From Candidatus Thorarchaeota archaeon (GTDB lineage Archaea > Asgardarchaeota > Thorarchaeia > Thorarchaeales > Thorarchaeaceae): a stretch of 64,000 nt of DNA. Under the pieces are notes generated by a model. It ran no database searches. It was not told the DNA's origin and saw only the letters and a program-made list of their open reading frames with translations. Shown here in pieces: positions 15,460 through 36,713 of this stretch. Positions within the stretch are counted from its first letter, which is position 1; the number at the start of each line of letters is the position of its first letter. The stretch spans positions 1,168,099 to 1,232,098 of the forward strand of contig JAIZWL010000001.1 in assembly GCA_021498125.1 (NCBI GenBank). Direction: 5' to 3'. The translations under genes were made by a program, and so were the position numbers.

Positions 15460-17166
15460 TTAGAATATCTTGGGTTCTTCCCACTCCCCGTAGACCTCTC
15501 GCCAGACATCACAGATCTCGCCCACCGAAGCGTACGCCTTGACCGCTTCAACAATGTGGGGCATGACATTCTCGGTCCCTTCTGATGCCTTTCTGAGTCC
15601 ATCGAGTGCTTCCTGAACTCGTTTGTTATCTCGCTCGCGGCGAATTCGTTGAAGTCGCTCGACCTGTTTCCGCTCGACCTCGGGGTCAATCTTGAGGACC
15701 GGAATCGCTATGTCCTCGCCTTCAAGAACGTACTCATTGACTCCTACAATGATCCTGCGTTTTTCTTCGATCTCTTTCTGATACCTGAAGGATGCGTTAG
15801 CGATCTCCTTTTGGAAGAATCCCTTTTCAATGGCGGGGATGACACCGCCAAGCGCATCAACCTGATCAAAGTACTTGTATGCCGCTTCTTCCATCTCGTT
15901 TGTCAGAGCCTCAACGTAGTATGATCCTGCAAGTGGGTCGATGGTATTAGCAACCCCACTTTCGTGAGCAAGCACCTGTTGGGTCCTCAGCGCTACTCGT
16001 ACAGCATCCTCAGTAGGCAGACAGAGAGCCTCATCCATGCTGTTTGTGTGAAGTGATTGCGTCCCACCAAGAACAGCGGCGAGTGCTTGATATGCGGTGC
16101 GAACGATATTGACCATGGGTTGCTGGGCCGTCAGTGAGCAGCCTGCCGTCTGTGTATGGAATCGCATCCAGAGGGATCGTGGCTTCTTGGCCCCGAATCT
16201 CTCTTTCATCTCGCGTGCCCATATCCTTCGTGCTGCCCGGTATTTTGCGATTTCTTCAAAGATGTCATTATGTGCATTAAAGAAGAATGACAGGCGAGGT
16301 GCAAAGGCATCAACATCAAGTCCCCTCTTAGTTGCCCACTCCACGTATGTGAGTCCATTCAGTAGAGTAAATGCAAGTTCTTGAACTGCGGTTGAGCCCG
16401 CCTCTCGAATGTGATAGCCACTGATGGAGATCGTGTTCCATCGTGGGATGTGTTCGGTCGAATATTCAATGATGTCAGTGATGATCCGAAGTGATGGCTC
16501 AGGTGGATAAATCCAGCTCTTTTGTGCCATGTATTCTTTGAGGATATCATTCTGGATCGTCCCGCCGATCTTGTCTGCTGGAACTCCGGTCTTTGCAGCA
16601 GCCACCATGTACATCGCAAGAAGGATTGACGCTGGAGCATTAATGGTCATTGATGTTGTGACCTTGTCAAGAGGTATGCCCGCGAATAAGATCTCCATGT
16701 CCTTGAGGGTGTCCACAGCAACGCCGAGTTTTCCAACCTCGCCGAATGCAAAGGGATGATCCGAGTCGCGCCCAAAGATGGTGGGCAAGTGAAAGGCAAC
16801 ACTGAGACCCGTCTGACCATTAGCGAGGAGAAATTTGTACCGCGCATTCGACTCTTCAGCAGTGCCCATTCCTGCAAATTGCCTCATCGTCCAGATACGA
16901 CCCCGATACATTGTGGGTTGTACACCACGAGTGTACGGGTACTGACTTGGAAATCCGAGATCTCTTAGGTAATCAAAATCCGGGATGTCTAATGGTGTGT
17001 ATATTCGTCGTACAGGTGTGCTCGACGTAGAGATGAATTCCTCCCTTCGCTCAGGATGACGCTCGATATGTTTGGCCAAGGTGGTGTTTTCCCATCCTTC
17101 TTTGGCCTCTCGGATCTTACGCAGCTCTTCTGCATATACAGGGTCGGTATCTGCCTTCTTGTCCAT
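15460..17166 (-). CDS. icmA: Acyl-CoA mutase large subunit with isobutyryl-CoA-mutase-type active site
   Basis: B12-dependent acyl-CoA mutase TIM-barrel subunit (568 residues) with no cobalamin domain of its own. ATG 17166 is preferred over ATG 17175 because AGGAG abuts the upstream ATG but sits about 9 nt from this one. The two specificity positions differ from methylmalonyl-CoA mutase. The tyrosine of TIRQY (Y89 in the Propionibacterium enzyme) is phenylalanine (TMRQF), and the arginine of KEFMVR (R207) is glutamine (KEYMAQ). This Phe/Gln pair is the known signature of isobutyryl-CoA mutase. Y243/H244 (SGYHIREAG) are kept. SVAFDL reads SVAFHL, an additional change next to the substrate pocket. 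No IcmB-like subunit is adjacent; the only B12 subunit in view is at 39647. It may act on isobutyryl-, pivalyl- or another branched acyl-CoA. Confidence 0.88.
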
Positions 17167-17221
17167 TGAGGGCATCTCCTCTTCTTGGAATTATTCTCTA
17201 AAATACGGGTTATTAAGTATT

Positions 17222-17232
17222 CCATTTATAAT
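17222..17232 (-). promoter_or_regulatory. Probable TATA box of the acyl-CoA mutase gene
   Basis: On the minus strand the sequence reads TATTATAAATGG, a good archaeal TATA element about 60 nt before the chosen ATG. It leaves a leader of roughly 30 nt that carries the AGGAG site. Confidence 0.45.
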
Positions 17233-17329
17233 AGTAATAGTTTGAATCATTTCGGTTTAGTTATTATGAGCGATGAAACTTGTCCGAAACACTAATGTTA
17301 TTCGCATAACTTAAATTAAGTGAACTGTA

Positions 17330-18859
17330 ATGGAATTGGAGTCAAACGTCGAATTAACTGGCCAATCACGTATGATTCGGATTAAGAATTTTGGTCCTAT
17401 AAAAAAAGCAGAGATTGAACTCACTCCTTTTACTATTTTTATTGGGCCAAATAAAGCCGGAAAATCTTATGCTGCGACATTGATAAATTCCCTCGTGAAT
17501 CTGTTTAATTATGGTCTTCTTACCTCATTTATCGTGTCCCCTCGGGCAGTTGACGATGAACATGTAGACTCCTCTCATATTTCGAACGATCTGATAAATT
17601 GGGTCTTGATGTTTTATGAAACCGTTTATGGTACTTCTGTTGATAAAAATGCGGTACGCAGAGAGATAGCGCTATTATTAGATTATTTGGAAGAAAATAT
17701 AACGAATTTACTTGTCCGTGGATTTGCCTGTGATCTGGATGATTTAATTAGACATGGCTCAGAAACCATGCAAGTGGAGATCGAAAGCAACAACTTGAAA
17801 TTGGATATTCTGTTTACGAGCGTTCCAAAGGCATCACCCCGTACAAGAGTTTCTGTAGCTGTGACGGATGTCCCCTCTTTTGATCGTGATGAAATTATTA
17901 AAGCAAAATCATCTGGTGATCTAGATGATATTCTTCAGCTCAATGAGGGCTTGGTAAATCTCTTGGCCAAAAATTATATGCTTCGCGATAACCAAGGACC
18001 TCCCTCAGTCGATTTCATTCGGATGATTGTTTTTATTCGGAATGCATTGGCTATTCTTTTTCATTCCGCCTTTGGAGATATTGCCTATTATCTTCCGGCA
18101 GCAAGGGGCGGGTCGTTACAAACGTATCGTTCTCTGACACGTACTATTTATGGGGATTTGCCTCTTTCTTTTGTAAAACGTTCACATCCACGAGAACCAA
18201 CACTTACGGGATCACTAGCAGATTTATTTGCAAATCTGGTTGATATGCCTGATAAGATGGGTCCTCTTGCAGAAATTGTAGGTAAATTCGAGGATGATAT
18301 TCTGAAAGGCCATATAGAATCGGTTCAAGATGGCTATGGTGCTACTCGGCTTGAATTTATTGAAGGCGCTTATCATATGGGTCTTCATAGAGTTTCTTCT
18401 GCGATTTCAGAGCTTGCCCCATTGTTTCTCTATTTGAAGTACTATGTCATACCTGATTCTCTTCTCATAATCGAAGAACCAGAGTCTCATCTACACCCTC
18501 ACAATCAGATGAAAATCGCATTCTTGCTCGCTCGTCTTTTGAGTGAGAACGTTAATGTTCTTATTACGACCCATAGCGAGTATATCCTAAATGCAATTGA
18601 TCTCTGTGTTATGGCATCTTCTCTCCCTGATGACGAGTTGGAAAAACTCTCACTTGATACATCGGTTCTGATTGACAGAGATGAGCTGGCAATCTTTTTG
18701 TTCGAATTTGATGATGATGGATTTGTGATTACGAAACCATTGGCGATTACAGAAGATGGAATCCCCGATGAGGAGTTTTCAAAAGTACACAGTGTATTAT
18801 ATGATAAATTATTACTAATTGACGCGGCACTAGCAAGACAACGGCATGACGAGGAATAA
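17330..18859 (+). CDS. AAA/ABC-type ATPase (AAA_15/AAA_21, OLD/PtuA-like) of a putative defence pair
   Basis: A 509-residue SMC/ABC-superfamily ATPase. Walker A is GPNKAGKS at 39-46, inside FTIFIGPNKAGKSYAA. Walker B with the catalytic acids is LLIIEEPESHLHP at about 380-392, and the histidine switch is ITTHSEY near 410. A long insertion of about 300 residues separates the two halves. There is no TOPRIM domain at the C-terminus. The layout is like PtuA of Septu and related ATPases that guard against phage. The region is clearly richer in A and T than its neighbours, which suggests acquisition. The stop overlaps a short frame, and the next gene, a nuclease-like partner, starts 3 nt on. An ATG at 17372 is an alternative start. 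Confidence 0.85.
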   Translation: MELESNVELTGQSRMIRIKNFGPIKKAEIELTPFTIFIGPNKAGKSYAATLINSLVNLFNYGLLTSFIVSPRAVDDEHVDSSHISNDLINWVLMFYETVYGTSVDKNAVRREIALLLDYLEENITNLLVRGFACDLDDLIRHGSETMQVEIESNNLKLDILFTSVPKASPRTRVSVAVTDVPSFDRDEIIKAKSSGDLDDILQLNEGLVNLLAKNYMLRDNQGPPSVDFIRMIVFIRNALAILFHSAFGDIAYYLPAARGGSLQTYRSLTRTIYGDLPLSFVKRSHPREPTLTGSLADLFANLVDMPDKMGPLAEIVGKFEDDILKGHIESVQDGYGATRLEFIEGAYHMGLHRVSSAISELAPLFLYLKYYVIPDSLLIIEEPESHLHPHNQMKIAFLLARLLSENVNVLITTHSEYILNAIDLCVMASSLPDDELEKLSLDTSVLIDRDELAIFLFEFDDDGFVITKPLAITEDGIPDEEFSKVHSVLYDKLLLIDAALARQRHDEE

Positions 18860-18862
18860 TGA

Positions 18863-19348
18863 ATGACTCTCTTGCCGCAGATACGTTCCTGCTACAATAA
18901 TGCATGCATTAAAAATCGTTGTGAAGAAAATCAAACGTGACTTGAAATCTCATCGACTAATCAAAACGGCTCGCAACCTTATCTCATCATTGATGGAGAT
19001 TGTGTTGACACAAATCACAAAAGTTGTGACTGTATTATTTACTTTGAGAGTAATTTGAACTTTTATGTTGCATGTGTTGAGTTAAAGTCTAGACGATTTA
19101 GAGCATCGGAAATTATTGAAAAATTCGAAAATAGTATTCAGTTAGTTGAAACGATGACGAAACCTCTTCTCACTCTTCGAGACATTCCTCTTTTATTTGT
19201 AGTTCTTCACAAGTCGGGTGTGAAACGAGAGATTCAAGAACTACGTAGACGTTATGTGCATTTTCAAAGTCGAAGATACGGGATAGTTCTCAAACGATCA
19301 GGTACAAATCTTTCAGATATGCTGAAATTTGCGTCATTTGGCAAATGA
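18863..19348 (+). pseudogene. PD-(D/E)XK nuclease-like partner protein, interrupted by one in-frame TGA
   Basis: A single frame of 162 codons runs from ATG 18863 to TGA 19346, broken only by TGA at 18938-18940 (codon 26). Before it comes a cysteine-rich start, MTLLPQIRSCYNNACIKNRC. After it, YLIIDGDCVDTNHKSCDCI continues into the pattern of a PD-(D/E)XK fold: the aspartate in DCIIYFES and, 15 residues on, ELK (CVELKS) as the ExK motif. It directly follows the ATPase gene and has the same AT-rich composition, so the two form a pair. The TGA may be a nonsense mutation, a recoded codon (selenocysteine or tryptophan), or a sequence error. A downstream TTG at 19055 could restart a 97-residue fragment that would keep ELK but lose the aspartate. 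The nuclease assignment is inference from motif spacing. Confidence 0.55.
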
Positions 19349-19358
19349 ACCAGCCTCA

Positions 19359-19928
19359 TCAGAATTCAAACCCTCTTCGTGCAAGAAGCTTCTTCGTCTC
19401 ATAGTAATGTTTGACCTCGGTCATCTCGGTGACCAGATCAGCAGCCTCAAGTATCTCCTGCCGCGCATATCGTCCGGTCATTATGAGTTCGACATCTGGA
19501 GGTCGCATCTTGATAAGGTCAAGTTGGTCTTCAAGAGATATGAGACCCCACTCCACTGCAACGTTGATCTCGTCAAGGATCAACATATCGCACTTGTGTT
19601 CCTGTAAGGCCTCTTGCGCCATCTTGAGGCCATCCTGCGCCATCTGAATGTCGACGGGGTCAGGGTTCTCTTTACTCACAAAGGACTGGCGTCCTACAGG
19701 GATTATGGTGAAGTTGGGAATGAGGTCCGTCGTCCTGAATTCACCGTAGTTCACATCAGTTCCTCCGCTCCGTTCTGCGACCTTTGCTTTCATGAAGCAG
19801 ATCATGAGCACTTCCAGTCCGTGTCCTGCTGCTCGAAGCCCTGCCCCAAGCGCGCAGGTGGTCTTGCCCTTTCCGTTGCCAGTATAGATCTGTACCTGTC
19901 CTTCAATCTCTGGTCTGGTGGGACTCAC
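19359..19928 (-). CDS. cobO: Cob(I)alamin adenosyltransferase (CobO/CobA/BtuR family)
   Basis: Transfers the adenosyl group of ATP to cob(I)alamin, giving the coenzyme used by the two mutases in this window. P-loop GNGKGKTT is at 17-24, in the IYTGNGKGKTTCALG context typical of CobA/BtuR. MLILDEINVAV and the C-terminal ELIMTGRYARQE segment are also family marks. At 189 residues it is the usual length. Its ATG overlaps the stop of the iron-sulfur flavoprotein gene by 3-4 nt, so a flavin donor and the adenosyltransferase are made together. The flavoprotein could supply electrons for Co(II) to Co(I) reduction. Confidence 0.93.
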   Translation of the reverse strand: MSPTRPEIEGQVQIYTGNGKGKTTCALGAGLRAAGHGLEVLMICFMKAKVAERSGGTDVNYGEFRTTDLIPNFTIIPVGRQSFVSKENPDPVDIQMAQDGLKMAQEALQEHKCDMLILDEINVAVEWGLISLEDQLDLIKMRPPDVELIMTGRYARQEILEAADLVTEMTEVKHYYETKKLLARRGFEF

Positions 19929-21889: not shown

Positions 21890-23131
21890 ATGAAGTTTGA
21901 GAAACAGAATACAGTTGAACTCGGAACTGTGGATGAGGACGTAGAAATCGTTGATTGCAGTTCCCTCATTCCTTCCGAGGGCGACACCATCACAATATCT
22001 GGGCGCCTCAAGATCAAGGGCGACCTTGACATCAGGGGTTCCCTTCGAGTTCATTCCATCGAGGCCAAGGGCAACATCACTATTGAGGGTAACCTTATCT
22101 CGGATGATGGGGTTGTCATCAAGAAGAACGATTTGGAGGTCGAGGGGTCTGTGAAGGCTCGGACTATAGATGTGGACAAGCAGCTCTTGATTCATGGTGA
22201 TATTGACTGTGATGCTGTAAAAGGAGGCGGCTCGGTCAAGGTCACGGGGAATGCGCGGGCCACAAAAATAAGTGGCGGCGGTTCTGTTGTCATTAAGGGC
22301 GATGTCACATCTGAGAGAGTGGCCGCAGGTGGTGCTATTCGACTTCATGGTAATGCGGATATTGAAGAGCTGGCCGTGGGCGGCAGTGCAAAGGTAATAC
22401 GTGGCAAGATCGAATCGGTCTCTGTTGGAGGCTCGTTCTCCGCGCAGGATGCAATTATAATTGAGCGGCTCTCTGTAGGTGGGAGTGCCTCAGTAGGATC
22501 GAATTCCGAGATTGAGCGTGTTAGTGTTGGAGGTTCATTCGAGGTAAAGGGGCAGCTCGAGTTTGGCCGAATCGATGTTGGGGGAACTGTCAAATTAGAA
22601 GGTGATGCTAAAGGCGACGAGATCTCTGTTGGCGGGGCAATCTCTGTGGACGGTAATCTCGCACTCGATCGCCTTGAGGTTGGGGGGCGCGTCACAGTAT
22701 CCGGGAACATTCATTGTGATGACCATTTACAGGTTGGTGGTACTCTGACTTGTGAAGGTGACGTGATTGCCGAGGATCTGATCATTGGCGGTTCAATTGA
22801 GGCGAAGTATATCAAGGCCGAACGATTTAGAATTGGGCGAAAAGGTGAGGTCATAGGTCCCGTCGAGGCCGAAGACATTCTCATCCGCGAGAAATCCCGT
22901 GTCGATCTTCTCTATGGGTCTCGAATTCGTGTTGAAGAGAAGAGCCGTGTGCGAGCAATCTATGGTGATGATGTAGTCATTGAACGTGATGTAAAAGTCC
23001 GTGACAAGGTCGTCTACACCAACACTCTTGATATGGAAGACGATGTTGAACTCCGAAATCCCCCCGAGAAGGTCGATACACTCCCATCAATTGATGATCT
23101 CATTAACAGAGACCCTCTGGGATTTCAATGA
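21890..23131 (+). CDS. Bactofilin-like (polymer-forming) beta-solenoid protein
   Basis: A 413-residue cytosolic protein built of short beta-solenoid turns, with no signal peptide or membrane helix. From about residue 35 to 370 it repeats units of 10-20 residues, such as ISGRLKIKGDLDIRGSL, and a central block of VGGS/VGGA turns (SVGGSFSAQD, SVGGSASVGS, SVGGSFEVKG). These are like the VxGxVxGxI pattern of bactofilins and DUF342-type polymers, but longer. Bactofilins self-assemble into filaments that shape cells. A similar role here is inference. The last 7 bp overlap the convergent methyltransferase gene. Confidence 0.72.
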   Translation: MKFEKQNTVELGTVDEDVEIVDCSSLIPSEGDTITISGRLKIKGDLDIRGSLRVHSIEAKGNITIEGNLISDDGVVIKKNDLEVEGSVKARTIDVDKQLLIHGDIDCDAVKGGGSVKVTGNARATKISGGGSVVIKGDVTSERVAAGGAIRLHGNADIEELAVGGSAKVIRGKIESVSVGGSFSAQDAIIIERLSVGGSASVGSNSEIERVSVGGSFEVKGQLEFGRIDVGGTVKLEGDAKGDEISVGGAISVDGNLALDRLEVGGRVTVSGNIHCDDHLQVGGTLTCEGDVIAEDLIIGGSIEAKYIKAERFRIGRKGEVIGPVEAEDILIREKSRVDLLYGSRIRVEEKSRVRAIYGDDVVIERDVKVRDKVVYTNTLDMEDDVELRNPPEKVDTLPSIDDLINRDPLGFQ

Positions 23132-28972: not shown

Positions 28973-29007
28973 AGGGATTTTTTTCGGGCTGCTTAGGAGT
29001 GGTTCAT

Positions 29008-31512
29008 TTGAAGGTATATACTTCGTTTGCATGTGGATTTCTGATTGCTTTTTTTGCGGTCATTCTAGCTACGGCCGTTCATCCTGCTCAGAGTCCAGCT
29101 TTTCTAAATACTGTGACTATGAACAACACTGAATTCTCTCACGATATCAGGCTCTCTCCAAGGTATGCTTCAGCCTATACCACGCATACTTCCATTACTA
29201 TTTCTTCGAATGCGGATTTTGCAACACAGGCCTGGCCCGGTAATGGTACTGCGAGTGATCCGTATGTGATTGAGGATCTAAACATCACAACCTCTGGTAC
29301 CTGCATTAGCATCAAAAATACAGATGCCTATTTTATGATTCGAGATTGTCTACTCACTGGTGGTATTAGTGGAACTGGAGTCCGGTTTAATAATGTGTCC
29401 AACGGAGAGATCACTGGTTGTCGAATCCATGGCAACTATGATGGTGTCTATTTCTACACCACGACCAATAGTAGTATTGTAAATTGTACGATTACTTCGA
29501 ATAAGAACTATGGTGTGTGTGGTATTTATACAACGAATAGCAGTATGAGAAACAACACGATCACCTTGAACAATGGGCATGGAATGCTTTTCTATGGCTC
29601 GTCGAATTGTAGTATCGAATGCAGCACTATTACTTCGAACGGGGAGGATGGTGCACTTCTCTTTAATACAAATCACTTTAGTATTGTGAACAGCACGATC
29701 ACTTCGAACCGTGTAGGTGGTATAACGTTTTATTTCTCCTCTAATAACACACTCACCCATAATATATTTTTCAATAATGGTCTCTATATTTCAGGCACTT
29801 CTGTGACCTACTGGCATCACTATATCAGTCCTGACAATACTGTGAACGGAAAGACCTTGGGTTACTTCTGGAATCAGACTGGTGCCACTGTAGATGGGCG
29901 TCAGTATGGGCAGGTGATTCTGGCCAACTGTACAGGAATGCGAGTGGAGAATGGTTGGTTCTATAATGTAACAGTGGGAATCGAACTAGGCTTTTCTTCA
30001 GACTCAATAGTACGGAACGTTACGATAACGTCGAACCAGCAAAATGGCGTGTACTTTCAATATGCGACGAATAGTAGTATTATGAACGCCACGATCACCT
30101 CGAACCAGCAAAATGGCGTGTACTTTCAATACGCGATGAATAGTAGTGTCGTGAATGCCACGATTACCTCGAACCGGCAAAACGGGATTTATTTCGAGTC
30201 CACAACGAACAGTAGTATAACTGGCAGCACGTTATCTTCGAACCAGCAGAATGGTATTGGACTTTGGTTCACCGCGAATAATAGTATCACGAACAATTCG
30301 ATTATTCAAAACTCGGTTGGTGTTATTATTGATCGTAATTCAACAGGCAACTCTCTTTGGCTCAATAGTTTTGTATTGAATCAAAATGCCAACGCCCAAG
30401 ATAATGGTACTGCCAATCACTGGAACGCTACAAACGTAGGGAACTATTGGTCTGATTATAGCGGAACTGGTGTCTACTATGTTTCCGGAAGTGCTGGTGC
30501 CATCGATTACCATCCCTCGGGCTGGAGTGATAGTGCGCCTCCCTCGATAGACCACCCTGCTGATCTTCAGTATAATGAGGGCACAACTGGTAATTCCATC
30601 ACGTGGCACCCAAGTGACAAGTATCCCTTAAGCTACAACGTCTACCGGAATGGGACACTTGTAGGATCTGGGAATTGGAATGGCAGTTCCATCACAGTAA
30701 ACGTGGATGGTCTGAGTATAGGGCGATACAACTACACGCTTGTCGTTTTCGACGCAGCAGGAAACAAGAATGATGATACTGTCTTCGTCACAGTTGTGGA
30801 TGGTACCCCGCCGGTCATCGATCATCCTACAGATGTGACCTATGCTGAAGGAACAACGGCTCACTCGATCACGTGGAACTCAAGTGATGCCCATCCTCTA
30901 AGGTATGAGATCTATAGGAATGGTACGCTCATCTTTTCAGGAGGCTGGACTGGTGGCACGCTCATGGTGAATGTTGATGGCCTGAGTATGGGCGTATACA
31001 ACTACACAGTGGTCGTCTATGATGTGGGTGGGAACTTTGCCCGTGATATCGTCTTCGTCACAGTTGAAGATGGAACTTCACCGACCATTGATCATCCCTC
31101 AGATGTAGGCTATGTCGAAGGAACGGTTGGTCACTCAATCACGTGGAGTCCGAGTGATGCCCATCCCTCACGCTATGAGGTCTACCGGAATGGTACCCTT
31201 GTAGGATTCGGAACTTGGGACTGCAGTTCCATCACCGTGAACGTGACCGGATTGGATGTGGGTGTGTACAACTTCACCGTAGTAGTCTATGATGCTGCTG
31301 GAAACCAGAACAGCGACACAGTCTTTGTTACGGTACTTGCCCATAGTTCTACTACAACTACCACGACCACCACGACCACAACCACATCCGGTACAACTAC
31401 GCCTACTCCGGGTGATCAGGGTGGACTAAGTATAGTGGTTATCATTGCTATTGCAGGCATCGGTGCTGTTGTGATCGTCATTGTAATTTTCCTGATGCGC
31501 AAGCGTACATAA
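29008..31512 (+). CDS. Surface protein A: parallel beta-helix, three Ig-like repeats, C-terminal anchor
   Basis: A secreted protein of 834 residues. TTG 29008 is chosen because AGGAG at 28995-28999 would otherwise overlap a GTG at 28999, and because the paralog begins at the same MK-YT position. A signal peptide (FLIAFFAVILATAVHPA) is followed by about 400 residues of right-handed beta-helix repeats rich in N and S (NSSIVNATITSN turns, NosD/PbH1 type). Three tandem Ig-like domains of 90 residues come next. A threonine stalk (TTTTTTTTTTTTSG) and a helix (VVIIAIAGIGAVVIVIVIF) ending RKRT anchor it. Many NxS/T sequons suggest heavy glycosylation. The role may be adhesion or an S-layer partner. 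Confidence 0.82.
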   Translation: MKVYTSFACGFLIAFFAVILATAVHPAQSPAFLNTVTMNNTEFSHDIRLSPRYASAYTTHTSITISSNADFATQAWPGNGTASDPYVIEDLNITTSGTCISIKNTDAYFMIRDCLLTGGISGTGVRFNNVSNGEITGCRIHGNYDGVYFYTTTNSSIVNCTITSNKNYGVCGIYTTNSSMRNNTITLNNGHGMLFYGSSNCSIECSTITSNGEDGALLFNTNHFSIVNSTITSNRVGGITFYFSSNNTLTHNIFFNNGLYISGTSVTYWHHYISPDNTVNGKTLGYFWNQTGATVDGRQYGQVILANCTGMRVENGWFYNVTVGIELGFSSDSIVRNVTITSNQQNGVYFQYATNSSIMNATITSNQQNGVYFQYAMNSSVVNATITSNRQNGIYFESTTNSSITGSTLSSNQQNGIGLWFTANNSITNNSIIQNSVGVIIDRNSTGNSLWLNSFVLNQNANAQDNGTANHWNATNVGNYWSDYSGTGVYYVSGSAGAIDYHPSGWSDSAPPSIDHPADLQYNEGTTGNSITWHPSDKYPLSYNVYRNGTLVGSGNWNGSSITVNVDGLSIGRYNYTLVVFDAAGNKNDDTVFVTVVDGTPPVIDHPTDVTYAEGTTAHSITWNSSDAHPLRYEIYRNGTLIFSGGWTGGTLMVNVDGLSMGVYNYTVVVYDVGGNFARDIVFVTVEDGTSPTIDHPSDVGYVEGTVGHSITWSPSDAHPSRYEVYRNGTLVGFGTWDCSSITVNVTGLDVGVYNFTVVVYDAAGNQNSDTVFVTVLAHSSTTTTTTTTTTTTSGTTTPTPGDQGGLSIVVIIAIAGIGAVVIVIVIFLMRKRT

Positions 31513-31531
31513 TGGTCTTACATCAGTATCA

Positions 31532-31582
31532 GTCTAGAAGGTGGTCTTGAGATCCAAAACTGCCTCTAGACCCGCTTTTTTC
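31532..31582 (+). terminator. Terminator of surface protein A (copy 1 of a shared element)
   Basis: A hairpin formed by GTCTAGAAGG and CCTCTAGAC (31532-31541 with 31563-31571) followed by CCGCTTTTTTCTTT. Nearly the same 45-bp element stands after the paralog at 36734-36784. Confidence 0.6.
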
Positions 31583-31941
31583 TTTATATCACATTGTTTC
31601 ATAAGATTGAGCACTTGTACTGTCTTTTTGAGAGTCACTGGGATTTGTAACAAGGTATGATCAGTCTGCTCCTACTGTACTTGGGACATATATTATTATA
31701 TTTTAGCGAGCAATTCACTATTTTATCCCGACTTAGTGCGCCTCTTTGAATGAATTGTGTGTTTATTCAGTTTGAGCGACAAACAGTTGTGAACAGTCCT
31801 TATTGTTATCAAGTTTCTGATATTGCGCATCTTGTTTTGACTCTCTTCCGATAGTTTGCTCACCTATTTTAGCTAGACCTTTTCCACTATGATGTCAATC
31901 TTTGGTGACTGGCCAATCTGATACTATTGAAACTCCGCACA
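31583..31941 (+). other. Long AT-rich intergenic with a shared 5' motif
   Basis: About 360 bp without a gene. A stretch at 31888-31914 (starting TATGATGTCAATCTTTGGTG) matches one at 28858-28885 upstream of the first paralog, so the two genes share upstream as well as downstream flanks. I see nothing else. Confidence 0.5.
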
Positions 31942-31958
31942 TTTTTATAAAAAAAGAG

Positions 31959-31972
31959 TAATATATATATAT
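31959..31972 (+). promoter_or_regulatory. TATA box of surface protein B
   Basis: An (AT)n run (TAATATATATATAT) lies about 45 nt before the ATG at 32007, the same distance as in the paralog. Confidence 0.45.
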
Positions 31973-32006
31973 GGCATTTACACACAGGTAGGACCCAGTG
32001 GTTGAT

Positions 32007-35000
32007 ATGAAGGCATATACGTTATTGGTGCGTATATCTCTGATTGTATTTTTTGCAATTTTGGTTTCTGCAGCAGTTCATCCTGCTCAGAGCCCAGCGC
32101 TTTTGAATACTGTATTTACAGATAATACTATGGAGTCCCTTCCCCGGACGGGAATTGTTCCAAGGTATGCTCCGGCCTATACTTCGCACAGCCCCATCAC
32201 TATCAGCTCGAATGCCGATTTTGCAGCACAGGGCTGGCCAGGAAATGGTAGCACGGGCAATCCCTATGTTATAGAGGGCCTGAACATCACAGCATCTGGG
32301 AATTGCATCTCCATTAGTAATACAAATGTTCATTTTGTGATTAGAGGTTGTCTACTCTCTGGTGACACCACTGGTGATGGAATCTACCTCTTTAACGTGA
32401 CCAATGGAAAGATCTCTGGTTGTCTTGTTCAGAACAAGTATTATGGTATCCGTCTGGAGTCCACATCAAATAGTACTATTGTAAATTCTACGGTATCTTC
32501 AAATGCTATTGTTGGTGTGGAATTCAATACGGTTACGAACAGTAGTATCGTCAATAGCACAATCAATTCGAATGGGCGTGATGGCGTCTACTTCTATTCT
32601 TCGACGAACAGTAGTATCGTCAATAGCACAATCAATTCGAACTCACAATATGGCGTGTTTATTTCATATTCCATAGGCTGTAGTGTCGAAGGTAGCACAA
32701 TATATTCGAACACATACCATGGTGTGCTTTTCTTTCACTCAACGAGTAGTCGGATCATAAATGGTGAATTTTATTCAAACGGGAATGATGGGATTTTCTT
32801 TGATTCCACAACTGAGAGTAGTGTTGTGAATTCCACCTCCTATTCAAATCAGCAAAATGGTGTGAACTTTGACTCCTCGACGGACTGTACGATCGTCAAT
32901 AGCACAATCAATTCGAATACGCAAAATGGTGTGAACTTTGACACTACGACGGACTGTAGTATCGTCAATAGTACGATTGGTCCGAACGAGAATAACGGAG
33001 TAGGCCTTTATCAAACTACGAACAATAGTATTGTAAACAGCACTATTGCCTCGAGTGGGTATAATGGTATATATTTATGGTACTCGACTGGTAGCTACTT
33101 ATCGCAGAACACGTTTTTGAATAATGGAATCTATATTTATGGGAGTCAGCCAAGTTACTGGCACCACAATATCAGTTCTGATAATATGGTGAACGGGAAG
33201 ATTTTGGGTTACTTTTGGAGTCAGAACGGTGGCACTATCGATGGGAGTCAGTACGGGCAAGTGATCTTGGCCAACTGCACAGGAATGCGTGTGGAGAATG
33301 GCTATTTCCATAATGCAACAGTGGGAACGGAATTAGGCTTTTCGACCAATATCACCCTCGCGGACAGCATTATCTCTTCGAATGCACATGATGGTGTCTA
33401 TTTCTATTCCACGTCAAACAGTAGCATCGTGAATTGTACTATTTCTTCGAGTGGTTTTGATGGTGCCCATTTCTCGTCAGCCGCGAATAATACGATCTCA
33501 CATAGCACCTTTATGAATAATGGTCTATTGGTTTTCGGATCTTCTATATTTCATTGGCATCAGACGGTTAGTTCTGACACGACTGTGAACGGAAAAACAC
33601 TGGGCTACTTTTGGAATCAGACTGGTGGCACTATCGATGGGAGTCAGTACGGGCAAGTGATCTTGGCCAACTGCACAGGAATGCGTGTGGAGAATGGCTA
33701 TTTCCATGATGCATCAGTGGGCTTGGAGATAGGTTATTCCTCCAACATAACGGTAGTGAACAGCATAGCCACATCTAATGCTCATTATGGCATGCTCTTC
33801 TCATACTCATCGAATATTGATATTGTAAATGCCACGATTAGTTCTAACCCGTTATATGGCACACTTCTCTATTACTTGACGAATAGTACTGTCGTGAATA
33901 GCACGATCAGTTCGAACGGGGATATCGGCATGTATCTCTATTCATCGACTGGCTGTAGTATCGTGGGCAGCACAATCTCGTCGAATGAGCAGCATGGTAT
34001 ATACTTCTATTACTCGACGGATTGTAGTATTGAAGACAGTACGATCAGTTCAAACGTGTACGAAGGAGTGTATTTCACATCCACAACGAACTGTAGTGTT
34101 GTGGAAAGTACAATATCTCTGAATTCGTATGGTATGTGGATCTCGTCTACAACGAGTACTAACATTGTTGGCAGTACTATAACTTCGAACAATATTGATG
34201 GTATGCATATTGTTTCTACAACGGATAGTAGTGTCGTGAACAACACGATCACTTCGAACGGGGAAGATGCTGTGGAATTTGTTTCCACAACGGATAGTAG
34301 TATCGTGAACAATACAATCGATTCAAATCAAGGTGTTGCAGTGTTTCTTTCTTCTTCCTCATATAGGAACATACTGGCAAACAACACTCTCAGTCTGAAC
34401 TCCGTTGGAGTTGTTATTGACAGCTCTTCGACTAACAACACACTCTGGTTCAACGTCTTTGCGTGGAATCGAAATAATAATGCCTACTCCGATGGCCCCG
34501 ACAATCAATGGAATTCTACAAGCGTGGGGAACTATTGGTCCGATTATTCTGGTACTGGTACCTACAACATCCCCGGTAGTGGTAACAATATCGACTACTA
34601 CCCGATGACGTGGACCGATACTACACCTCCGACGATTGATCATCCCGCCGATCTCCAGTATGACGAAGGGGTAAGTGGCAACGCGATCACATGGAACCCG
34701 AGTGACAGATATCCCTCACACTACGAAGTGTACAGGAATGGGACACTTGAAGAGTCTGGTGACTGGAATGGTAGTTCTATCACTGTGAACGTGGATGGCT
34801 TGAGTCTGGGAGTGTATAACTATACCATCGTAGTCTATGATGCCGCAGGAAATCACAACCAGGACACGGTCTTTGTCACAGTCGTGGATGGGACCGCCCC
34901 TACGATCGACCACCCTGCGGATGTAGAGTATGACGAGGGTACGACTGGTCACTCGATCACATGGGCTCCGAGCGATGCTCATCCCTCAAGCTACAAGATC

Positions 35001-36713
35001 TATAGAAACGGGACAGTAGTGGACTCAGGAAGTTGGGATGGTAGTTCTATCACTGTGAACGTGGATGGCTTGAGTCTGGGAGTGTATAACTATACCATTG
35101 TTGTCTATGATGTAGGTGGAAATCACAACCAGGACACGGTCTTTGTCACAGTCGTGGATGGGACCGCCCCTACGATCGACCACCCTGCGGATGTAGAGTA
35201 TGACGAGGGTACGACTGGTCACTCGATCACATGGACTCCGAGTGATGCTCACCCCTCACGTTATGAGGTCTACAGAAACGGAACAGTAGTGGACTCAGGA
35301 AGTTGGGATGGTAGTTCTATCACTGTGAGTGTGAACGGGTTGAGTGCGGGAACGTACAACTACACGATCGTGGTATATGACGTTGCGGACAATCATGTGA
35401 CAGATACTGTCTTTGTCACAGTTGAAGATGGGACCGCCCCTACGATCGACCACCCTGCGGATGTGGAGTATGACGAAGGCACGACTGGCCACTCGATCAC
35501 ATGGACTCCGAGCGATGCTCATCCCTCAAGCTATATCGTCTACAGAAACGGAACAGTGGTGGACTCAGGAAGTTGGGATGGCAGTTCTATCACTGTGAAC
35601 GTGGACGGACTGAGTGTAGGTGTTTACAACTACACACTAGTGGTCTACGATGAGGCCGGGAATATGAATAGTGACATGGTCTTTGTCACTGTTGTTGATG
35701 GAACCACACCGGCAGTTGATCATCCCGCAGATGTGGAGTATGACGAGGGCACGACTGGTCACTCGATCACATGGACTCCGAGCGACGCTCACCCCTCAAG
35801 CTATATCGTCTACAGAAACGGAACAGTGGTGGACTCAGGAAGTTGGGATGGCAGTTCTATCACTGTGAACGTAGATGGCTTGAATTTGGGAGTGTATAAC
35901 TACACACTAGTGGTTTATGATGAAACTGGGAATCACAACCAGGATACGGTCTTTGTCACAGTTGAAGACGGGACAGCCCCGACGATCGACCACCCCGATG
36001 ATGTGACCTATGATGAGGGCACAACTGGTCACTCGATCACATGGACTCCGAGTGATGCGCACCCATCACGCTACGAAGTATATCGGAATGGTACCCGTGT
36101 AGGTTCAGGAAGCTGGACTGGGACTCCCATCACTATGAACGTGGATGGACTGAGTGTGGGAACGTACAACTACACGATCGTGGTCTACGATGTTGGAGCG
36201 AATTACGTGACTGATACGGTCTTTGTTTCAGTCGTAGATGGGACAGCCCCGACGATCGATCACCCCGATGATGTGACCTATGATGAGGGCACAACTGGCC
36301 ACTCGATCACATGGACACCCAGTGATGCCCATCCCTCACGTTATGAGATATACAGAAACGGAACAGTAGTGGACTCGGGAAGTTGGGATGGCAGTTCTGT
36401 TACTGTGAGTGTGGACGGGTTGAGTGTAGGAGTGTACAACTACTCATTGGTGGTCTATGATGAGGCCGGACACCTGAACAGTGACATGGTCATTGTCACA
36501 GTACTCGCTCACAGTACTACTCCCACAACCACCACAACAACCACAACCACTACTACTACAACCACAACGGCAACGGGCACTACCTCCCCCACTACTACAA
36601 CCACAACAACGTCTACTCAAGGTGGGCTGAGCTTAGTAGTCTTGATCGGTATCGCAGGAATCGGTGCTGTTGTGATCGTCATCGTAATTTTCATGATGCG
36701 AAAGCGTCCATGA
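32007..36713 (+). CDS. Surface protein B: giant paralog with long beta-helix and seven Ig-like repeats
   Basis: A secreted, anchored protein of 1568 residues, twice the length of its upstream paralog. ATG 32007 (MKAYTLLVRISLIVFF) is preferred over GTG 31998. After the signal peptide, the beta-helix part runs to about residue 860, with two internal copies of a spacer segment around GQVILANCTGMRVENGYFH (33250-33330 and 33650-33720). Seven Ig-like domains of exactly 90 residues follow, and the middle ones are almost identical in DNA. The C-terminus is a threonine stalk plus the helix LVVLIGIAGIGAVVIVIVIF and RKRP. The size difference between the paralogs is due to repeat number. It is probably heavily glycosylated. 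Confidence 0.82.
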   Translation: MKAYTLLVRISLIVFFAILVSAAVHPAQSPALLNTVFTDNTMESLPRTGIVPRYAPAYTSHSPITISSNADFAAQGWPGNGSTGNPYVIEGLNITASGNCISISNTNVHFVIRGCLLSGDTTGDGIYLFNVTNGKISGCLVQNKYYGIRLESTSNSTIVNSTVSSNAIVGVEFNTVTNSSIVNSTINSNGRDGVYFYSSTNSSIVNSTINSNSQYGVFISYSIGCSVEGSTIYSNTYHGVLFFHSTSSRIINGEFYSNGNDGIFFDSTTESSVVNSTSYSNQQNGVNFDSSTDCTIVNSTINSNTQNGVNFDTTTDCSIVNSTIGPNENNGVGLYQTTNNSIVNSTIASSGYNGIYLWYSTGSYLSQNTFLNNGIYIYGSQPSYWHHNISSDNMVNGKILGYFWSQNGGTIDGSQYGQVILANCTGMRVENGYFHNATVGTELGFSTNITLADSIISSNAHDGVYFYSTSNSSIVNCTISSSGFDGAHFSSAANNTISHSTFMNNGLLVFGSSIFHWHQTVSSDTTVNGKTLGYFWNQTGGTIDGSQYGQVILANCTGMRVENGYFHDASVGLEIGYSSNITVVNSIATSNAHYGMLFSYSSNIDIVNATISSNPLYGTLLYYLTNSTVVNSTISSNGDIGMYLYSSTGCSIVGSTISSNEQHGIYFYYSTDCSIEDSTISSNVYEGVYFTSTTNCSVVESTISLNSYGMWISSTTSTNIVGSTITSNNIDGMHIVSTTDSSVVNNTITSNGEDAVEFVSTTDSSIVNNTIDSNQGVAVFLSSSSYRNILANNTLSLNSVGVVIDSSSTNNTLWFNVFAWNRNNNAYSDGPDNQWNSTSVGNYWSDYSGTGTYNIPGSGNNIDYYPMTWTDTTPPTIDHPADLQYDEGVSGNAITWNPSDRYPSHYEVYRNGTLEESGDWNGSSITVNVDGLSLGVYNYTIVVYDAAGNHNQDTVFVTVVDGTAPTIDHPADVEYDEGTTGHSITWAPSDAHPSSYKIYRNGTVVDSGSWDGSSITVNVDGLSLGVYNYTIVVYDVGGNHNQDTVFVTVVDGTAPTIDHPADVEYDEGTTGHSITWTPSDAHPSRYEVYRNGTVVDSGSWDGSSITVSVNGLSAGTYNYTIVVYDVADNHVTDTVFVTVEDGTAPTIDHPADVEYDEGTTGHSITWTPSDAHPSSYIVYRNGTVVDSGSWDGSSITVNVDGLSVGVYNYTLVVYDEAGNMNSDMVFVTVVDGTTPAVDHPADVEYDEGTTGHSITWTPSDAHPSSYIVYRNGTVVDSGSWDGSSITVNVDGLNLGVYNYTLVVYDETGNHNQDTVFVTVEDGTAPTIDHPDDVTYDEGTTGHSITWTPSDAHPSRYEVYRNGTRVGSGSWTGTPITMNVDGLSVGTYNYTIVVYDVGANYVTDTVFVSVVDGTAPTIDHPDDVTYDEGTTGHSITWTPSDAHPSRYEIYRNGTVVDSGSWDGSSVTVSVDGLSVGVYNYSLVVYDEAGHLNSDMVIVTVLAHSTTPTTTTTTTTTTTTTTTATGTTSPTTTTTTTSTQGGLSLVVLIGIAGIGAVVIVIVIFMMRKRP
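34621..36510 (+). repeat. Seven tandem 270-bp repeats encoding Ig-like domains
   Basis: Unit starts lie at 34621, 34891, 35161, 35431, 35701, 35971 and 36241, exactly 270 bp apart. Each begins near a GG(A)AC-(G/C)C-CC-T-C-GATCGA-CA block and encodes the phrase (D)EGTTGHSITW followed by HPS and YRNGT. The near identity of neighbouring units suggests recent unequal exchange or gene conversion. Surface protein A has three such units at 30532, 30802 and 31072. Confidence 0.85.

What the first reader, a model, noticed from the sequence alone, without database searches (positions are those of the whole stretch)
17330..19348. Candidate two-gene defence system: OLD/PtuA-like ATPase plus PD-(D/E)XK-like small nuclease
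The ATPase has an uncommon pairing: directly after it, and in the same AT-rich block, is a small protein with a D-x15-ExK motif, not an HNH or TOPRIM nuclease. PtuA-PtuB (Septu) uses HNH and Gabija uses TOPRIM with a helicase, so this would be a different effector. The composition suggests import. The nuclease call rests on motif spacing alone.
Basis: partly seen in the sequence, partly recalled or inferred. Interest (0 to 1): 0.65.

Follow-up and report, generated by a model that had tools for sequence, protein, structure and literature searches.

The report
Archaeal ATPase–nuclease defence pair, nuclease broken
An Asgard archaeon (Thorarchaeota) carries a probably imported two-gene virus-defence cassette of a kind already known from bacteria (PD-T4-4/WonAB type: an OLD-like ATPase sensor plus a small PD-(D/E)XK nuclease), but in this genome the nuclease gene is cut by an early stop codon.

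Summary
The pair is real. Gene A (17330-18859, 509 aa) is an OLD/PtuA-like ABC ATPase with intact motifs. Gene B (18863-19348) starts 3 bp after A and, read through, has the motif D56-x16-E73-x-K75. B is interrupted by TGA at codon 26 and the next common start lies beyond D56, so B is probably inactive here. Intact A+B pairs occur in two same-genus Thorarchaeota and two other Asgard genomes; all five full-length B matches in 228 Asgard genomes adjoin an A. The nuclease call now rests on weak hits to the partners of A's best hits (PDC-M47B, PD-T4-4_B), hhalign 95% to bacterial PD-T4-4_B, an AlphaFold2 model whose nearest solved folds are mostly PD-(D/E)XK enzymes (none individually significant), and relatives hitting restriction-endonuclease Pfams. 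It is an archaeal branch of the published OLD-ABC ATPase + REase kind (PD-T4-4, PDC-M47, WonAB), not a new effector type. Import is supported: A and B have the lowest GC3 of 44 ORFs and occupy a cobA-mcm spacer that is empty in most relatives and holds other cassettes in a few. Likely mechanism, by analogy: abortive infection through an ATPase-gated nuclease; untested in archaea.

The parts
17330..18859 (+). Gene A: OLD/PtuA-like ABC-type ATPase, 509 aa; no TOPRIM, helicase or nuclease domain detected
   Evidence: Pfam AAA_15 7e-23, AAA_21 7e-14; PADLOC best PD-T4-4_A 7.7e-35, PDC-M47A 7.6e-27; AlphaFold2 model pTM 0.78 with nearest solved structures PtuA of Septu and retrons
17444..17467 (+). 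Walker A, residues 39-46 GPNKAGKS
   Evidence: invariant G39, N41, K45 across 12 ATPases
18461..18484 (+). Walker B, residues 378-385 LLIIEEPE, followed by D-loop-like SHLHP
   Evidence: invariant E383-P384-E385 and L388-H389-P390
18566..18577 (+). H-loop, residues 413-416 TTHS
   Evidence: invariant H415, S416
18863..19348 (+). Gene B: PD-(D/E)XK-like nuclease partner, 161 codons if read through; interrupted
   Evidence: intact homologues of 156-169 aa directly after A in G001, G003, G178, G203; hhalign to bacterial PD-T4-4_B 95.3%, E 2.4e-8; AlphaFold2 pLDDT 77.5
18938..18940 (+). Premature in-frame TGA, codon 26 of B
   Evidence: the only interrupted one of five full-length B matches in the phylum
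19028..19087 (+). Nuclease motif: D56 (19028), E73 (19079), K75 (19085), within KSCDCIIYF...VACVELKS
   Evidence: D56 invariant in 15 homologues, K75 nearly so
19055..19057 (+). First common in-frame start codon (TTG) after the premature stop; lies downstream of D56
19359..19928 (-). Flank: CobA/CobO-type corrinoid adenosyltransferase (one edge of the insertion spot)
   Evidence: Pfam PF02572 3.9e-54
15460..17175 (-). Flank: methylmalonyl-CoA mutase-type large subunit (other edge of the spot)
   Evidence: named from the sequence and general knowledge, no family search run; found in 45 of 47 family genomes; adjacent to cobA in most relatives

Best explanation
The locus is a horizontally acquired two-gene antiviral cassette of the OLD-ABC ATPase + PD-(D/E)XK nuclease kind (PD-T4-4 / PDC-M47 / WonAB-like), in a branch found in Asgard archaea. 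Likely mechanism: the ATPase A dimerises, binds ATP at composite sites and senses an infection cue. Through its C-terminal region it holds B and, on ATP-dependent activation, licenses B's metal-dependent PD-(D/E)XK centre (D56, E73, K75) to cut nucleic acid, stopping infection by abortive shutdown of the cell. In WonAB the inferred target is rRNA or tRNA, because translation stops while DNA stays intact. In this genome B carries a premature stop, so the cassette is probably recently inactivated, while same-genus copies are uninterrupted. Shown here: both genes, motifs, conserved pairing, homology to the bacterial systems, the broken frame, the variable site. Inferred: complex formation, trigger, cleavage target, defence function in archaea.
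For: A: PADLOC PD-T4-4_A 7.7e-35; profile-profile match to bacterial PD-T4-4-type ATPases 100%, E 4.6e-62 over 427 columns. B: weak hits PDC-M47B 0.0067, PD-T4-4_B 0.0086, PDC-M29B 0.0099, i.e. the partners of A's hits; the homologue in L007 hits PD-T4-4_B at 3.5e-5; hhalign 95.3%. Nuclease fold: helix-strand-strand-strand(ELK)-helix-strand model, pTM 0.76; nearest PDB folds are mostly Bse634I, HincII, MunI, FokI, Cfr10I, BsmI, EndoMS, Hjc and cap-snatching endonucleases; more distant B relatives hit RE_EcoO109I above its cut-off and HSDR_N_2 just below it. Pairing: all five full-length B matches among 228 Asgard genomes adjoin an A, and a B-sized gene follows A in nine annotated plasmid and phage records. 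Mobility: lowest GC3 in the window; cobA-mcm spacer empty in most relatives, occupied by A+B in G000 and G001 and by other genes elsewhere. Mechanism by homology: WonAB experiments in PMC12137116.
Against: No experiment exists for an archaeal copy. No single Foldseek hit for B is significant (best E 0.025). The window B's own profile hits are weak. The B frame is broken. WonA/WonB sequences could not be fetched, so similarity to WonAB rests on shared architecture and the paper's statement that WonAB resembles PD-T4-4. The one characterised archaeal OLD ATPase, Cran1, is a cell-cycle protein and apparently not a defence protein (PMC12796447).
Confidence: 0.8

Rival explanations
1. The system is fully functional here: the TGA is a sequencing or assembly error, or it is read through or recoded (for instance as selenocysteine), so an intact B is made.
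For: The rest of B keeps the motif residues and stays open for 135 codons after the TGA; the genome has a strong tRNA-Sec match (62.4 bits); the assembly is a draft in 14 contigs.
Against: No Rfam element in the region and no unusual RNA fold around the TGA (z 0.09). Only 10 bp separate B's end from cobA, leaving little room for a 3' SECIS element. The aligned residue in relatives is not a conserved Cys. None of this excludes a sequencing error.
Confidence: 0.2
2. Septu, Gabija or PARIS variant: the ATPase belongs to one of these OLD-family systems and B is incidental.
For: A's nearest solved structures are PtuA, and AriA, GajA and PtuA models match members of this ATPase group more weakly.
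Against: PD-T4-4_A scores higher (118.7 bits against 94 for AriA and 46 for GajA). There is no HNH, helicase or TOPRIM partner; B-type partners recur instead.
Confidence: 0.05
3. Housekeeping archaeal OLD ATPase (Cran1-like, genome maintenance or cell cycle), with B an accessory nuclease and no role in defence.
For: The characterised archaeal OLD protein Cran1 acts in cell-cycle progression (PMC12796447). The flanking genes here are metabolic.
Against: Sporadic presence (3 of 47 family genomes; 8 of 228 in the phylum), different sites in G001 and G003, atypical GC and a tolerated broken B argue against an essential role.
Confidence: 0.08
4. Toxin-antitoxin pair: A restrains a toxic nuclease B.
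For: Adjacent small toxin-like nuclease and larger partner; another cassette in the same spacer of G002 has a GNAT protein of a kind common in toxin-antitoxin modules (the last point from general knowledge).
Against: In WonAB, B is toxic only when A is present and ATPase-competent, which rules out simple sequestration (PMC12137116). A large ABC ATPase encoded first is unlike usual antitoxins.
Confidence: 0.05

Closest known systems
PD-T4-4 (Vassallo et al. 2022, PMC9519451; PADLOC PD-T4-4_A/_B)
   Same: Two-gene operon, OLD-type ATPase then small PD-(D/E)XK-like protein; best PADLOC hit of A; B homologous by profile-profile comparison
   Different: Enterobacterial B is about 200 aa against 156-169 aa here and aligns only over about 49 core columns; the Asgard ATPases form their own clade
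WonAB (Vibrio cholerae WASA-1 prophage, PMC12137116)
   Same: OLD-ABC ATPase plus small PD-(D/E)xK nuclease (16.1 kDa); the paper calls it closely related to an 'OLD-ABC ATPase + novel REase' operon and similar to PD-T4-4
   Different: Sequences not compared here (primer search gave no locus); the paper surveys bacteria only
PDC-M47 (PADLOC candidate system)
   Same: A hits PDC-M47A 7.6e-27; B's top PADLOC hit is PDC-M47B 0.0067
   Different: To my knowledge an experimentally untested candidate; the B match is weak
Septu (PtuA-PtuB)
   Same: ATPase fold: nearest solved structures of the A model
   Different: Effector is HNH in Septu; B here has no HNH match and a D...ExK motif
PARIS (AriA-AriB)
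   Same: AriA-like ATPase, A hits AriA 3.9e-27
   Different: PARIS effector AriB has a TOPRIM-type (DUF4435) domain (own knowledge); none found here

Membership tests
PD-T4-4 / OLD-ABC ATPase + REase kind | OLD-type ABC ATPase matching the family model, with Walker A, Walker B and H-loop intact | tested here: met
   PD-T4-4_A 7.7e-35; motifs conserved; profile-profile E 4.6e-62
PD-T4-4 / OLD-ABC ATPase + REase kind | Second gene is a PD-(D/E)XK-type nuclease homologous to PD-T4-4_B | tested here: met
   hhalign 95.3%, E 2.4e-8 over 49 core columns; L007 B 3.5e-5; window B alone only 0.0086; fold class by AlphaFold2 and Foldseek, no single significant hit
PD-T4-4 / OLD-ABC ATPase + REase kind | Genes adjacent in conserved order A-B | tested here: met
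   nine bacterial or phage records
PD-T4-4 / OLD-ABC ATPase + REase kind | Both genes intact at this locus | tested here: not met
   TGA at codon 26 of B
PD-T4-4 / OLD-ABC ATPase + REase kind | Anti-phage activity needing ATPase and nuclease | not testable with these tools
   Shown for WonAB in the literature only (PMC12137116)
WonAB (strict) | Sequence membership in the WonA/WonB subfamily | not tested
   Reference sequences not obtained
Septu | HNH endonuclease partner PtuB | tested here: not met
   No HNH match in window B or relatives
Gabija | TOPRIM-containing GajA plus UvrD-like helicase GajB | tested here: not met
   Pfam finds only ATPase-type domains in A; the downstream gene is 161 codons
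PARIS | AriB (DUF4435/TOPRIM-type) partner | tested here: not met
   No such match for B

The most novel reading that the evidence does not exclude
An Asgard-archaeal branch of ATPase-gated nucleases, distinct from bacterial PD-T4-4/WonAB in nuclease sequence and size and exchanged as cassettes through a cobA-mcm hotspot, in which this genome makes the effector only by reading through or recoding its TGA, as a brake on a toxic nuclease.
Probability: 0.03. Interest if true: 0.7.

Novelty: new member of a known kind. Interest (0 to 1): 0.36.

Why it matters
The WonAB paper surveys this ATPase-nuclease kind in bacteria only, and the passages read in two archaeal/Asgard defence surveys do not name it. 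Asgard defences are of interest for the origin of eukaryotic immunity. The finding extends the kind to another domain of life, gives intact archaeal pairs that can be tested, points to a chromosomal spot where cassettes turn over, and shows one copy that has lost its presumably toxic half.

Tried and rejected
Frameshift instead of a nonsense codon: an alternative-frame start at 18900 gives a peptide not similar to relatives' N-termini (z 0.3-1.9); the in-frame N-terminus is also only z 1.5-1.8, so the exact N-terminus is uncertain. Selenocysteine: tRNA-Sec is present, but no RNA element or supporting residue was found. Terminal repeats or target duplication at the cassette edges: longest shared word 8 nt, as expected by chance. 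PDB sequence search with the B profile: no hit. NCBIfam: no informative match. wonA primer search in viral contigs: none. Scan of viral contigs with the B alignment not possible, alignment too divergent. The 2020 ABC-ATPase survey paper is not held.

Full report
Observation. Gene A (17330-18859, +) encodes 509 aa. B reads from ATG 18863 to 19348 in the same frame, 3 bp after A's stop, with one in-frame TGA at codon 26. The motif is D56-x16-E73-x-K75. A and B have the lowest third-position GC of 44 window ORFs (0.324 and 0.290; median 0.489).

Organism. The window is on contig 1 of a 3.1 Mb, 98% complete genome. The copies found in same-genus genomes G003 and G001 correspond to records of Candidatus Thorarchaeota (L006, L007), so the host is a Thorarchaeote (Asgard archaea).

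Gene A. Pfam finds AAA_15/AAA_21 and weaker SMC-like ATPase matches only. PADLOC's best models are PD-T4-4_A (7.7e-35), NsnB, AriA and PDC-M47A. Walker A, Walker B and H-loop are intact. The AlphaFold2 model (pTM 0.78) is nearest to PtuA of Septu and of retrons, then to Rad50, RecN and SMC heads. Profile-profile comparison with bacterial PD-T4-4-type ATPases gives 100%, E 4.6e-62. In a tree of 42 ATPases six Asgard proteins group together (SH-aLRT 94, drawn open, long branches present), apart from the bacterial PD-T4-4 group.

Gene B. No Pfam hit. Its only PADLOC hits, all weak, are PDC-M47B, PD-T4-4_B and PDC-M29B, the partners of models that A hits. Uninterrupted relatives of 156-169 aa lie directly downstream of A in G003, G001, G178 and G203; the L007 copy hits PD-T4-4_B at 3.5e-5, and more distant B proteins hit RE_EcoO109I above its cut-off (L027) and HSDR_N_2 just below it (L009). 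Asgard B against bacterial B by hhalign: 95.3%, E 2.4e-8 over the KxCD...ELKS core. The AlphaFold2 model of B read through (pLDDT 77.5, pTM 0.76) has the order helix, strand, strand, strand carrying ELK, helix, strand, helix. No single Foldseek hit is significant, but most of the 50 best PDB matches are PD-(D/E)XK enzymes (assignment to that superfamily is from my own knowledge of the named enzymes). The nuclease call therefore rests on concordant, individually modest evidence.

Pairing. The B profile finds six matches in 228 Asgard genomes; the five full-length ones all adjoin an A, and the sixth is weak and partial. In the nine plasmid and phage records read, the ATPase is always followed by a protein of about 184-212 aa; seven of the eight scanned hit PD-T4-4_B or PDC-M47B. 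Around viral-contig and other relatives, 47 of 79 ORFs directly downstream carry a motif of this form against 21 of 704 others.

Broken B. TGA 18938-18940 is followed by no common start codon before 19055, which lies beyond D56, so any ordinary product lacks part of the motif. This is the only interrupted full-length B in the phylum. A conserved C-x-E in the N-terminal part (C20, E22) is in frame before the TGA, which favours a simple nonsense codon, but similarity before the TGA is not significant on its own. Sequencing error, read-through and recoding are not excluded; the genome has a tRNA-Sec match, but no supporting element was found.

Site. cobA and mcm are adjacent (about 84-200 bp) in most of the family genomes examined. 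The spacer holds A+B in G000 and G001; a three-gene cassette with a GNAT acetyltransferase in G002, a close same-genus relative by mcm; a C39-peptidase-like pair in G014 and G015; and single genes in G006, G032 and G033. The mcm proteins of G000 and G001 are 88% identical, but the same-site A proteins only 37%; the G001 copy is closer to the off-site G003 copy (50%). This suggests repeated acquisition or replacement rather than simple inheritance, though fast divergence is not excluded. No terminal repeats were found.

Mechanism. WonAB is the best studied relative by architecture: both genes are needed, ATPase and ExK mutants lose protection, the nuclease is toxic only with an active ATPase, DNA stays intact and translation stops (PMC12137116). 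I infer the same logic here: ATPase sensor and gate, nuclease effector, abortive outcome. The target (rRNA or tRNA) is inferred even for WonB.

Novelty. The WonAB paper describes that system as part of a larger, as yet uncharacterised family of ABC-ATPase sensors paired with nuclease effectors (PMC12137116). A term search of PMC12988326 found no mention of PD-T4-4 or WonAB, and the passages found in the Asgard survey PMC11291487 name other PD systems but not PD-T4-4 (supplements not read). The archaeal branch is a new member of a known kind, with a broken effector in this genome.

Noticed in passing
window 17176-19358; L188, L190, L191, L192, L193, L194, L195: The cobA-mcm spacer of Thorarchaeota is an insertion hotspot: empty in most genomes, otherwise holding A+B, a GNAT three-gene cassette, a C39-peptidase-like pair or other small genes.
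   Followed up: partly
L195 3362-4936: Close relative G002 carries in this spacer a GNAT acetyltransferase (164 aa), a 141-aa and a 227-aa protein without Pfam match; looks like a toxin-antitoxin-type module.
   Followed up: partly
L188 1903-3429 and L190 1867-3375: C39-like peptidase (188 aa) plus a 319-aa protein without Pfam match inserted at the same spot in G014 and G015; function unknown.
   Followed up: no
genome G000 contig C3 129645-129731 (L203): Strong tRNA-Sec match (62.4 bits, above the family cut-off), so this Thorarchaeote may use selenocysteine.
   Followed up: no
window 28999-36713: Two large proteins (837 and 1571 aa) with right-handed beta-helix/NosD and PKD-like domains, probably surface proteins.
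   Followed up: no
window 21890-23131: Bactofilin/FapA-like beta-solenoid protein in an archaeon; similar proteins lie near cobA in relatives.
   Followed up: no
L007 6495-6962: The uninterrupted G001 B has VELR in place of VELK at the motif lysine, so its catalytic state is uncertain.
   Followed up: no
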